From: Leptotrichia massiliensis
GTDB taxonomy: Bacteria > Fusobacteriota > Fusobacteriia > Fusobacteriales > Leptotrichiaceae
DNA: 64,000 nucleotides
Assembly: GCF_900104625.1 (NCBI RefSeq)
Contig: NZ_FNVZ01000005.1
Coordinates: 1-64,000, forward strand
Direction of reading: 5' to 3'
In this document: piece after piece, positions 6 through 20,003 of the stretch
Layout: every line of letters starts with the position of its first letter
Position numbering within the stretch: the first letter of the stretch is position 1
Translations under genes and position numbers: made by a program
Notes under the pieces: model-generated
The model's input: only the letters and a program-made list of their open reading frames with translations
Told to the model about the DNA's origin: nothing
Database searches by the model: none

Positions 6-3009
<3,004 letters not shown>

Positions 3010-3033
3010 TTAACTTGACAATTTAGTTTTTAA

Positions 3034-3149
3034 AGTTTGGTGATGTTAGCAGCAGGGATACACCCGGTTACATTTCGAACCCGGCAGTTAAGTCTGTTTA
3101 CGCCTACGATACTTGGATTCGTCCCGGGAAAATAGGTAGTTGCCAAACT
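3034..3149 (+). rRNA. rrf: 5S ribosomal RNA
   Basis: The terminal helix AGTTTGG (3034-3040) pairs with CCAAACT (3143-3149). The internal sequence has the conserved ACACCCGGTTACATTTCGAACCC-like loop B/C region (split here at about 3060-3086), typical of bacterial 5S rRNA. It lies 60 bases after the 23S and 14 bases before a tRNA, the usual order of an rRNA operon. About 116 nt, the normal size. Confidence 0.95.
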
Positions 3150-3163
3150 TTTTTCTTTTGTGT

Positions 3164-3240
3164 GTCTCCGTAGCTCAGCCGGTTAGAGCATCTGACTGTT
3201 AATCAGAGGGTCGTTGGTTCGAGTCCAACCGGGGACGCCA
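3164..3240 (+). tRNA. tRNA-Asn (GTT anticodon)
   Basis: A 77-base cloverleaf. The acceptor stem GTCTCCG pairs with CGGGGAC (one G-U pair). The anticodon stem-loop TCTGA-CTGTTAA-TCAGA places GTT at 3198-3200. The T-arm carries GTTCGAGTC, and CCA is encoded at 3238-3240. It follows the 5S gene and is probably co-transcribed with the rRNA operon. Confidence 0.96.
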
Positions 3241-3840: not shown

Positions 3841-5166
3841 TTATGTATTCCATTTTTTTCTTAGATTAATTTTAAAATTTCCAAATTTATCCATTATATT
3901 GTGCGAAATATCGCTTAAAAATTCATCAAAAATATTAAATCCAAAATCAAAATTATTGTCAAATTTATTTTTTGAATAATTTTTGTAATGATTATTTAAA
4001 AGATTCCATAAGTCAAGACTTGAAAGATATAAGTTTCCAGTAATATTATATTTTTTAGGTATTCTTAACTTGAAAGAAACGGAATTAATTTCAACATTTT
4101 CTGCTGTATTTTGTGATAATTTGATTGTTTCAATTGCAGAAGTTAATTTTTTTTCCAAATTATTATTAGTATTTGAAAGAACGTGTGATGTTGAGTTATT
4201 TATTGATAATATTAAATTTTCAACATTTTGTGGTAAGTCATCATAAGGGATATTTGGCATATTTGTTGTTATCATTAGAAATCCTGCATTGCGTTCTTTT
4301 GAGAGTTTTAAAAGAGTTTTGTACTGATCTGGGGTTGCAGAATGAATGACATGAACAATACGATCTGCATTTTCAGGATTACTTTCAAAATTGTAACTTC
4401 TAGGAGTCCAGTAGTTGATGTAAGTATCTGCCGATACTTCGCTTGTTAGCCATAAATCAGAATAATTTGACATTTCATCTGTAATACTTACGCCAGGATT
4501 TGCAACAACCATTGAATCAGGATACTTTGTTTTGACATAATTGTATAATTGTGCCATATATTTGACCTCTAGAGGGTTTTTTCCAGATGATATTTCATCA
4601 AAGAAAATTCCTGAAATATTATCAGAACCATAAAATTGTATATATTTGTCAATTTCAGAATACACTTGCTTTATGCTTTTAGTATATTCGTTTGTAGTTA
4701 CGTATCCGAGATTTTTGATTCCCAGTTCTTTATTTTTTTTGATTTGAACAACATAGTTATAATCAGCCTTGTCAGATGGCCCGTTGTCGGGATTGATTAT
4801 AACGTAAGGAATTGTTGTTTCATATTCATAATTTTCAGAGTCTGGTGTACTAAGGAAATCATGATTAGAAGAATAAGTATTTGTAACTTTACTTTTATGA
4901 ATATCACCAGTATAGCCAAAATCAACTTTAAATTCATTTTCATTTTTTAAATTATTTTTTATAATATCAAAAATTTCATCATTTTTAGAAAAATTAAAAT
5001 TACTTTCTACACTTGATATGGTTTTATTTTTTAAATTATTAAAATTAGAAGTTTGTATTGACGAATCAATATTTGAGGAATGTACAGTTTTTTCATAACT
5101 TAATCCTGTTACACCCGCTAAGAAAGATGGAATTAAAAAACTGTTATTTTTTAATTTTTTCTTCAT
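3841..5166 (-). CDS. secreted spherulin-4-like (GH135-type) glycosidase
   Basis: A 441-residue protein whose central part (about residues 118-320) matches the Spherulin4 family: IINPDNGP near 123-130, GYVTT near 154-158, GIFFDE at 186-191 and ANPG near 222-225, in the TIM-barrel-like order expected. The fungal family member Sph3 (GH135) cleaves alpha-1,4-linked galactosamine polymers, with the Asp-Glu pair of the FFDE motif in the active site; that pair is present here. The start has a Lys-rich then hydrophobic segment (residues 1-20), so export is likely, although no clean signal-peptidase site is visible. Residues 25-115 and the last 120 residues are Asn/Ser/Lys-rich and unassigned. The start is supported by GGGAGG just upstream. 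The substrate in this organism is unknown; a role in trimming biofilm exopolysaccharide is inference. Confidence 0.75.
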   Translation of the reverse strand: MKKKLKNNSFLIPSFLAGVTGLSYEKTVHSSNIDSSIQTSNFNNLKNKTISSVESNFNFSKNDEIFDIIKNNLKNENEFKVDFGYTGDIHKSKVTNTYSSNHDFLSTPDSENYEYETTIPYVIINPDNGPSDKADYNYVVQIKKNKELGIKNLGYVTTNEYTKSIKQVYSEIDKYIQFYGSDNISGIFFDEISSGKNPLEVKYMAQLYNYVKTKYPDSMVVANPGVSITDEMSNYSDLWLTSEVSADTYINYWTPRSYNFESNPENADRIVHVIHSATPDQYKTLLKLSKERNAGFLMITTNMPNIPYDDLPQNVENLILSINNSTSHVLSNTNNNLEKKLTSAIETIKLSQNTAENVEINSVSFKLRIPKKYNITGNLYLSSLDLWNLLNNHYKNYSKNKFDNNFDFGFNIFDEFLSDISHNIMDKFGNFKINLRKKWNT

Positions 5167-5551
5167 TTATTACCTCCCTTCAGCATTATTTATAATGCTA
5201 AATTTGTATTTAGCAGTTTTTTATAGATCTTTCAAATGGTAAGTTATATTTTGATTTTCTATAAAACAGTTGACCAATAAAAATTTTAAGTCTAAAATTT
5301 TCCAATCCCATTTTAGCAATATATATTATCATTTTTTTTTTATAATTTCAAGAACTTTTTTCTAAAAGAAGATAAAATTTTATTAAAAATAAAATATGCA
5401 GCCAAATTAATAACATTGACTGCTTTTTCATAATTTTAAATTGGATAACATAGTAATACTATGTATTAAAGCTTAAATTAAAAGTTTTAATTACTATAAA
5501 GGAGTTAAGTGTCTTTTTAACTTAGCTTGTTTAAAGTTTTAGTAGTATAAA
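5167..5551. other. intergenic stretch with a hairpin before the spherulin-type gene
   Basis: The only clear structure is a perfect hairpin, AGCATTA-TTTA-TAATGCT at 5182-5199, directly upstream of the Shine-Dalgarno sequence of the minus-strand gene that starts at 5166. It could act as a 5'-leader stem-loop or as an operator. The remainder is A/T-rich and without a recognisable gene. Confidence 0.5.
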
Positions 5552-5782
5552 TTAATGTCTTTTATTTTGTTTTATACTAGGTTTTTTAGTGTTTCTTTTT
5601 TCTTGAGGATTTATTGTTTGTTTTTTTGTTGGCTTTTTGTTTATCGTTTTTCTTTTTGATTGAACAACCGTTATTTTTGGTTTTGGCTTTGGATGCTTAG
5701 GAGGTACTGCAAAAGAGACTATTGAAATTCCAATAATTCCTAGAATTGCAACCATTTTCTTAAAGGTGTTTTTTATATTCAT
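5552..5782 (-). CDS. small secreted basic Pro/Lys-rich protein
   Basis: A 76-residue product starting MNIKNTFKK, with a hydrophobic segment MVAILGIIGISIVSFA (about residues 10-25) that looks like a signal peptide. The rest is Lys/Pro/Thr/Gln-rich low complexity (KHPKPKPK, then several KKPT/KKPS-like units). The open frame extends further upstream to 5857, but GGAG sits 9 bases before the ATG at 5782 and a strong promoter overlaps the upstream part, so the shorter start is preferred. I do not recognise a family. The basic tail could bind anionic surfaces (envelope polymers, DNA), which is inference only. Confidence 0.65.
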   Translation of the reverse strand: MNIKNTFKKMVAILGIIGISIVSFAVPPKHPKPKPKITVVQSKRKTINKKPTKKQTINPQEKRNTKKPSIKQNKRH

Positions 5783-19052: not shown

Positions 19053-19718
19053 ATGAAAATAAAAGACTTATCAATTTTATTGACAAAAGTTTCGTTATTT
19101 AAGGGATTAGATCCTGAAAAAATTTCAAAATGTTTGGAAAAATTGGATTTTAAAATAAAAAAATATGAAAAGAATGAAACTGTATTTTTTCGTGGAGATA
19201 CTTTGGAAAAAGTAATAATTATTATAAAAGGTTCTGCTTATGGAGAAATGCAAAAATTTAATGGAGATACGATTGTTATAGGTGAGATGAAAACAGGGGA
19301 AGTTCTGGCTTCTGCATTTTTATTTGGAGAAAATAATATTTTTCCTGTTGATTTGATAACTTTGGAAAATTCTAAATTATTATTTTTTGATAAAGAAAAA
19401 TATTTAGATACAATTCATTCTGATAAAAGACTTTTACTTAATTTTATAACTGAAATTTCAAATAAAAGTCAACTTTTATCAAAGCGAATATGGTTTAATT
19501 TTACAAATAAGACAATTGAGGAAAAGATTTTAAGCTACATAAAAGAAAATTCTGAAAATGGTAAAATTAAATTTTTGCCTAGTATTTCAGCTTTGGCAAA
19601 ACGTTTTGAAGTAACAAGACCTGCTTTATCAAGAGAAATTTCAAATCTATGTAAAAAGAAAATTTTAATAAAAGCTGAAAATAATGTCTATTTGATAAAT
19701 TTTAAAAAGAATGTTTGA
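19053..19718 (+). CDS. Crp/Fnr-family transcription regulator
   Basis: A 221-residue protein with an N-terminal cyclic-nucleotide-binding-like beta roll (about 10-120, starting LSILLTKVSLFKGLDPEKI) and a C-terminal winged helix (about 150-215) whose recognition helix is FEVTRPALSREISNL. There are no Cys residues in positions that would hold an FNR-type iron-sulfur cluster in the N-terminus, so an oxygen-sensing [4Fe-4S] role is unlikely; the ligand is unknown. GGGAG precedes the ATG. The promoter for the downstream small RNA overlaps its stop codon. Confidence 0.9.
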   Translation: MKIKDLSILLTKVSLFKGLDPEKISKCLEKLDFKIKKYEKNETVFFRGDTLEKVIIIIKGSAYGEMQKFNGDTIVIGEMKTGEVLASAFLFGENNIFPVDLITLENSKLLFFDKEKYLDTIHSDKRLLLNFITEISNKSQLLSKRIWFNFTNKTIEEKILSYIKENSENGKIKFLPSISALAKRFEVTRPALSREISNLCKKKILIKAENNVYLINFKKNV

Positions 19719-19743
19719 CATTTTTTCAGATAAAAGTTATAAT
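19715..19743 (+). promoter_or_regulatory. consensus promoter for the 6S-like RNA
   Basis: TTGACA (19715-19720), 17-base spacer, TATAAT (19738-19743). It overlaps the stop codon of the Crp/Fnr gene and has no protein gene downstream on this strand, so it most likely drives the RNA at 19781-19971. Confidence 0.8.
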
Positions 19744-19780
19744 GATTACAGATAAATAATCAATAATAAATTAAAAGTTT

Positions 19781-19971
19781 TCTGATCTATGCGATACTAA
19801 TAATGAATTTTTGGGCTTTACTCTATTTTAATGGGGTTATTCCTTTATAAATTGTTTCAGGGAAATCACGACGGCTAATGCTTTGTACGGATTCTGTACA
19901 ATTTATAAATATGACTACCACCTGTAACGTCTTACAGGCAACCAAAAATTACGTTAGAACGGTAGATCGGA
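19781..19971 (+). ncRNA. ssrS: probable 6S RNA
   Basis: A 191-base stretch that folds into a long rod. The closing stem TCTGATCTAT (19781-19790) pairs with GTAGATCGGA (19962-19971); further in CTAAT pairs with GTTAG and AATTTTTGG with CCAAAAATT. The distal arm TTTATAAATTGT pairs with ACAATTTATAAA, with the apical hairpin TTGTAC/GTACAA as an alternative. On the 3' side of the central open region sits a small hairpin CCTGTAA/TTACAGG (19921-19937), as in known 6S RNAs. A T run follows directly (19972-19980). Length, rod shape, the 3' central hairpin, the strong promoter and the terminator fit 6S RNA, which binds sigma-70 RNA polymerase in stationary phase. A processed 5' leader of about 30 bases is implied. 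Confidence 0.7.
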
Positions 19972-20003
19972 TTTTTTTTTGTTTTTAAAAGAAATTACTA
20001 AAA

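What the first reader, a model, noticed from the sequence alone, without database searches (positions are those of the whole stretch)
19715..19980. Probable 6S RNA with a consensus promoter embedded in the end of a Crp/Fnr gene
Seen: a 191-base rod-like fold closed by ten pairs, a 3' central hairpin, a terminal T run, and TTGACA-17-TATAAT upstream. Known: 6S RNAs have exactly this layout and size. The location after a Crp/Fnr-family gene and the roughly 30-base leader are worth noting for annotation of 6S in Fusobacteriota, where it is often missed.
Basis: partly seen in the sequence, partly recalled or inferred. Interest (0 to 1): 0.5.

Follow-up and report, generated by a model that had tools for sequence, protein, structure and literature searches.

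The report
Leptotrichia 6S RNA gene
This stretch encodes 6S RNA, a well-known small RNA that restrains the bacterial RNA polymerase; it is a real, conserved gene, and relatives of it turn up across almost the whole phylum Fusobacteriota, where the standard database model misses most of them.

Summary
Window 19781-19971 (+) folds into a 191-nt rod closed by ten contiguous pairs. It has a 17-nt open 5' central strand, a 3' central hairpin, nine Ts after it, and TTGACA-17-TATAAT at 19715-19743. It is 6S RNA: Rfam RF00013 at 47.9 bits (cut-off 46.4), single copy, with strong covariation. A model built only from fusobacterial sequences finds E. coli ssrS at its annotated place.

Three results go beyond the finding. 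(1) That model finds 6S in 95 of 98 Fusobacteriota genomes; in the same kind of search RF00013 finds 26, of which 21 pass its cut-off. (2) In 59 of 95 loci 6S directly follows aspS, its 5' neighbour in Bacillus subtilis; in Leptotrichia and three near genera it does not. (3) In 9 of 13 Leptotrichia genomes the -35 box TTGACA contains the Crp/Fnr stop codon.

Function (holding the housekeeping RNA polymerase, release by pRNA synthesis) is inferred from the family; no transcript was seen. New member of a known kind; moderate interest.

The parts
19776..19977 (+). 6S RNA gene (ssrS), extent of the covariance-model match
   Evidence: RF00013 47.9 bits; phylum model R1 212.9 bits (this sequence was in the training set)
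19781..19793 (+). closing stem, 5' strand (pairs with 19960-19971)
   Evidence: helix 1 of A1: 12 pairs, 100% of cells paired in 26 sequences, 4 pairs with compensatory change
19806..19814 (+). AATTTTTGG, stem next to the central bubble; also downstream part of the predicted pRNA template
   Evidence: helix 3, pairs with 19942-19950
19815..19831 (+). open 5' strand of the central bubble (GCUUUACUCUAUUUUAA)
   Evidence: unpaired in MFE and centroid; TTTTGGGCTTTACT is identical in 26 of the 28 family-f1 loci outside genus g9
19808..19821 (-). predicted pRNA, 5'-GUAAAGCCCAAAAA, start at C19821 (within about 1 nt)
   Evidence: inferred by alignment with the B. subtilis 6S-1 pRNA and E. coli ssrS; not observed
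19921..19938 (+). 3' central-bubble hairpin CCUGUAA-CGUC-UUACAGG
   Evidence: helix 8 of A1, 94.6% of cells paired; weaker across the phylum, 73.1% (helix 9 of A2)
19960..19971 (+). closing stem, 3' strand
19972..19980 (+). T run, probable 3' end / terminator
   Evidence: T run of 5 or more in 13 of 13 loci of the genus, 43 of 95 overall
19715..19743 (+). promoter TTGACA-17-TATAAT; the -35 box holds the crp/fnr stop codon
   Evidence: 12/12 in 10 of 13 and 11/12 in 3 of 13 genomes of the genus
19750..19780 (+). 5' leader (about 30 nt), probably trimmed
   Evidence: inferred from the -10 position; distance from -10 box to match start varies 32-72 nt in the 13 genomes of the genus
19053..19718 (+). 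Crp/Fnr-family regulator gene, upstream neighbour
   Evidence: PF00027, 42.9 bits; no NCBIfam cut-off reached

Best explanation
This is the single-copy 6S RNA (ssrS) gene of a Leptotrichia species. The consensus promoter at the end of the crp/fnr gene starts a precursor near 19750 that ends at the T run near 19980; the ~30-nt leader is probably trimmed. The rod-shaped RNA mimics an open promoter, holds the housekeeping-sigma RNA polymerase, and is released when the polymerase copies the 5' bubble strand (from about C19821) into a short pRNA. Shown here: sequence, predicted structure, covariation, promoter match, T run, conservation, gene order. Inferred from the family: transcription, RNA polymerase binding, pRNA synthesis and release, leader trimming. 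Gene-order reading (inference): 6S was ancestrally next to aspS, as in Bacillus, and left it in the Leptotrichia lineage.
For: RF00013 above cut-off. Fold z = -5.9. A1: 95.3% of cells paired against 34-42% for slid controls, 30 of 58 pairs with compensatory changes, 0 of 500 shuffles as high; A2: 47 of 58 pairs. Model R1, trained on 26 fusobacterial sequences, puts its best hit in 1.7 kb of E. coli on annotated ssrS (684-867 against 684-866; 23.0 bits, next 6.7). R1 finds a match of 85.8 bits or more in 95 of 98 Fusobacteriota; the only other match listed is 15.3 bits. aspS directly upstream (1-118 nt) in 59 of 95; aspS is the 5' neighbour of bsrA (6S-1) in B. subtilis (PMC11077062, passage). 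TTTTGGCCTAAC in some fusobacteria resembles the complement of the 6S-1 pRNA GUUCGGUCAAAACUA (PMC12005410, passage).
Against: The Rfam score is only 1.5 bits above cut-off, and RF00013 gives nothing at E <= 1 for 11 of 13 divergent loci tested. The GG at pRNA positions 4/5 or 5/6 described as conserved (PMC8414754, passages) reads AG here, if the start site is right. No expression or binding data. R1 scores on the 26 training sequences are circular; only the other 69 loci and E. coli are independent tests, and the E. coli score is modest. The opposite strand also folds (z = -3.3) and matches R1 weakly (21.7 bits).
Confidence: 0.96

Rival explanations
1. The structure is a cis-acting 3' UTR or terminator of the crp/fnr mRNA, not a separate RNA.
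For: It directly follows crp in 11 of 13 genomes of the genus; the pattern scan found no + strand terminator-like site between them.
Against: A perfect promoter lies between; the RNA is kept with its promoter where crp is elsewhere (G079, 6.7 kb away; G069, 54 kb away); in 59 of 95 loci the neighbour is aspS, not crp; it matches 6S.
Confidence: 0.02
2. A 6S RNA whose transcription is controlled by the neighbouring Crp/Fnr protein, which binds the palindrome ATAACnGTTAT over the -10 box and answers a metabolic or redox signal.
For: Palindrome perfect in 9 of 13 genomes of the genus (read by eye); a crp homologue lies within about 1 kb of 6S in 16 of 18 genomes of g1, g3, g6 and g8, in two arrangements. 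CcpA sites overlap the -35 region of 6S promoters in lactic acid bacteria (PMC8414754, passages).
Against: In this genome the palindrome has a mismatch (ATAAAAGTTAT). One half overlaps the -10 box, so it is partly forced. It is absent in g3, g6 and g8 (by eye). In g9 the crp homologue is elsewhere and 6S sits at aspS. No binding test.
Confidence: 0.12
3. A structured RNA of another class that only resembles 6S (analogue, not homologue).
For: The Rfam score is marginal; most Fusobacteriaceae-family copies are not reported by RF00013.
Against: The reciprocal model finds E. coli ssrS; aspS order shared with Bacillus; template-strand similarity to 6S-1.
Confidence: 0.02

Closest known systems
6S RNA / SsrS, Rfam RF00013 (E. 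coli ssrS)
   Same: Rod with closing stem, open central strand and long terminal arm; about 190 nt; mutual model hits.
   Different: AT-rich sequence; other gene neighbours (E. coli: zapA and fau); predicted pRNA without GG.
Bacillus subtilis 6S-1 RNA (bsrA)
   Same: aspS is its 5' neighbour (PMC11077062 passage), as in 59 of 95 fusobacterial loci; similar pRNA template in some of them.
   Different: In Leptotrichia the gene is not at aspS but behind crp/fnr; single copy in this genome; in 53 of 60 f2 loci the 3' neighbour is argS, not yrvM.
Ms1 RNA (Actinobacteria)
   Same: RNA polymerase-binding RNA, structurally related to 6S (PMC9130861, start of abstract in a search listing).
   Different: Ms1 binds core enzyme (same abstract); for this stretch RF00013 was the only Rfam family at E <= 1.

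Membership tests
6S RNA (RF00013) | Covariance-model score at or above Rfam's gathering score | tested here: met
   47.9 against 46.4 bits, full length 1-187; close to the limit
6S RNA (RF00013) | Rod of about 180-200 nt: closing stem, large central bubble with open 5' strand, long terminal hairpin arm | tested here: met
   predicted fold and pair counts
6S RNA (RF00013) | Structure kept by compensatory changes across relatives | tested here: met
   30 of 58 pairs; 47 of 58 pairs on 91 distinct rows (one row is an antisense match, and the alignment was fitted to the structure)
6S RNA (RF00013) | Homology with an experimentally defined 6S RNA | tested here: met
   R1 best hit in the E. coli stretch is ssrS, 23.0 bits, E 3.7e-6
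6S RNA (RF00013) | pRNA template in the bubble; GG at pRNA position 4/5 or 5/6 (a described hallmark, not a strict criterion) | tested here: inconclusive
   Template strand strongly conserved, but the predicted pRNA GUAAAGCC has AG there; start site inferred
6S RNA (RF00013) | Binds RNA polymerase with the housekeeping sigma factor and templates pRNA | not testable with these tools
   needs pull-down and in vitro transcription
6S RNA (RF00013) | Abundant stable transcript, often rising in stationary phase | not testable with these tools
   no RNA data at hand

The most novel reading that the evidence does not exclude
In Fusobacteriota the 6S gene changes its transcriptional host. It begins as an aspS-linked RNA; in some lineages (g9, f4, f2g18) it starts 1-10 nt after the aspS stop without a recognisable promoter and would have to be cut out of the aspS mRNA. 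In the Leptotrichia lineage it was refitted with a consensus promoter fused to the stop codon of a Crp/Fnr gene and came under that protein's control, so that supply of the global RNA polymerase brake is tied to translation-gene transcription in one lineage and to a Crp/Fnr signal in another.
Probability: 0.1. Interest if true: 0.6.

Novelty: new member of a known kind. Interest (0 to 1): 0.38.

Why it matters
6S RNA is a global regulator, and in this phylum the standard model misses most copies: RF00013 reports 26 of 98 genomes, a phylum-trained model 95 of 98 (same strict filters). That matters for annotating oral and gut Fusobacteriaceae and Leptotrichiaceae. The aspS-6S order shared with Bacillus supports one ancient gene. 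Lineages in which 6S touches the aspS stop codon without a visible promoter make the question 'can 6S be made from an mRNA 3' end?' directly testable.

Tried and rejected
Considered and rejected or left open: (1) A mobile element inserted between crp and 6S in G079 and G069. In G079 the whole 6.7-kb interval was read: ORFs that look chromosomal by eye (no family search) and no shared 12-mer between its two ends, so rearrangement is the simpler reading. In G069 only the stretches near the two ends of the 54-kb interval were read, with two short shared matches, so an element is not excluded there. (2) A second 6S copy in Leptotrichia: none; R1 lists one match in each of the 13 genomes, and aspS is followed by other sequence in the 13 loci printed. 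(3) A yrvM/ThiF-type gene near 6S, as in Bacillus: a simple motif search found 0 of 95, which does not exclude divergent copies. (4) 6S on phages or plasmids: no blastn match at E 1e-3. (5) The three genomes without a hit, G001 (0.8 Mb), G057 (62% complete), G067 (86% complete): re-searched with laxer filters, best 13.6 bits, not credible. (6) The 6S tree does not settle whether the move away from aspS happened once: aspS-linked g5 falls inside the clade of g1, g3, g6 and g8, and g1 itself is not a clade there. (7) Antisense matches of R1 on the rod (21.7 and 23.7 bits) reflect the near-symmetry of the helix and were not counted. (8) An aspS fragment 4 kb from 6S in G077 lies after a transposase-like ORF; taken as unrelated.

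Full report
What is there. Window 19715-19980 (+) holds a 12-of-12 promoter match (TTGACA 19715-19720, TATAAT 19738-19743), a leader of about 30 nt, a 191-nt rod (19781-19971) and nine Ts (19972-19980). The rod has an MFE of -54.1 kcal/mol, z = -5.9, 0 of 200 shuffles as low; its complement has z = -3.3. The fold shows ten contiguous closing pairs plus two, a stem AATTTTTGG/CCAAAAATT (19806-19814 with 19942-19950), a 17-nt open 5' strand (19815-19831), a 3' hairpin (19921-19938) and a long terminal arm. The crp/fnr-type ORF 19053-19718 (PF00027) ends with TGA inside the -35 box.

Identity. Rfam's 6S model is the only family reported for the stretch at E <= 1 and matches at 47.9 bits against a cut-off of 46.4. 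The genome has one match. That score alone would be thin, so I tested further. RF00013 hits 26 of 98 Fusobacteriota genomes, 21 over cut-off. Aligned (A1), these 26 give 95.3% of cells paired against 34-42% for slid structures, and 30 of 58 pairs with compensatory change, reached by 0 of 500 shuffles. A model built from them (R1) finds E. coli ssrS at 684-867 of a 1.7-kb stretch annotated 684-866, 23.0 bits against 6.7 for the next match. That is a reciprocal match across phyla.

Extent in the phylum. R1 finds a match of 85.8 bits or more in 95 of 98 genomes; the only other match listed is 15.3 bits. The misses are a 0.8-Mb genome (G001) and two incomplete ones (G057, G067), not rescued with laxer filters. 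Both phylum searches used strict filters that lose weak matches, so 26 is a lower bound for RF00013: of 13 loci from genomes it had missed, a permissive scan showed it at E <= 1 in 2, both below cut-off (43.8 and 35.5 bits), and in none of the other 11. On the wider alignment 47 of 58 pairs show compensatory change (91 distinct rows, one of them antisense, fitted to the model's structure). A degenerate DNA pattern from the core gave 24 stretches in named genomes, all 24 with fusobacterial names. A slightly narrower form had matched 67 of my 95 loci, so the pattern is specific but not complete.

Gene order. In 59 of 95 loci the 6S follows the aspS stop codon by 1-118 nt. aspS and argS were confirmed by NCBIfam on one example each; the other loci rest on a motif search and tblastn. 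In B. subtilis aspS and yrvM flank the 6S-1 gene (PMC11077062, passage), and a B. licheniformis table lists BsrA with aspS and yrvM (PMC3871023, passage). The aspS-6S order is therefore seen in two phyla. In 9 of 13 the TGA lies inside TTGACA (L001, L004, L005, L007, L008, L009, L013, L016, L018; worked out from positions); in L010 and L011 the stop is four codons earlier. In G079 and G069 crp is 6.7 kb and 54 kb away, yet a short crp-tail-like stretch (by eye) and the promoter remain with 6S. In g3, g6 and g8 (5 genomes) crp lies downstream and convergent. In g9 the crp homologue is not at 6S.

Promoters. In 123-nt upstream windows, 36 of 36 loci not at aspS have a match of 10 of 12 or better; so do 45 of 49 loci at 30 nt or more from aspS, but only 2 of 10 closer than 30 nt. 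Background: 5.8% of 1,882 other windows reach 10, 0.6% reach 11 and none reaches 12. In g9 the 6S match starts 1-2 nt after the aspS stop with a best score of 7-8. There 6S is either cut from the aspS mRNA or uses a promoter that this simple scan cannot see. In B. [quoted passage not shown]

Mechanism. By family membership the RNA mimics an open promoter, binds the housekeeping holoenzyme and is released by pRNA synthesis (PMC12005410 and PMC8414754, passages). The pRNA start is inferred at C19821: GUAAAGCCCAAAAA. Some fusobacteria have TTTTGGCCTAAC, close to the complement of B. subtilis 6S-1 pRNA GUUCGGUCAAAACUA. The GG hallmark (PMC8414754, passages) is AG in Leptotrichia; whether that matters is unknown.

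Literature. In the held library, '6S RNA' with 'Leptotrichia' gave 0 papers; with 'fusobacteri' gave 9. I read passages in four of them, none of which describes a fusobacterial 6S RNA; the other five I saw only as listings. The F. nucleatum transcriptome paper PMC11005410 has no '6S RNA' in its main text (term search). Three papers looked up by id that might report it are not held, so I claim no absence from print.

Verdict. The context adds a useful phylum-wide correction to annotation and two testable side questions (6S at the aspS 3' end; Crp/Fnr control).

Noticed in passing
L022, L023, L025, L026 (genus g9), 6S start: The 6S match begins 1-2 nt after the aspS stop codon with no promoter-like site above 8 of 12 in the 123-nt upstream window: possible 6S made from an mRNA 3' end.
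   Followed up: partly
60 f2 (Fusobacteriaceae-family) loci, e.g. L050: 6S lies upstream of argS in 53 of 60 loci, and in 48 of 60 it has aspS on the other side: a 6S between two tRNA-synthetase genes.
   Followed up: partly
window 19730-19740 and the same place in 12 relatives: ATAACnGTTAT palindrome across spacer and -10 box, perfect in 9 of 13 genomes of the genus, one mismatch here (by eye): possible operator.
   Followed up: no
L138 (G079), L139/L140 (G069): crp is separated from 6S by 6.7 kb and 54 kb; a short crp-tail-like stretch and the promoter stay with 6S.
   Followed up: partly
L142 about 5146-5583 (G077): A C-terminal aspS fragment 4 kb downstream of 6S, after a transposase-like ORF.
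   Followed up: partly
window 69-3240: rRNA genes at the contig start: 23S (69-2974), 5S (3036-3148) and tRNA-Asn (3164-3240).
   Followed up: no
Fusobacteriota 6S, helix 9 of A2: The 3' central hairpin pairs in 94.6% of cells in the 26-sequence alignment but only 73.1% phylum-wide: it may be lineage-specific.
   Followed up: no
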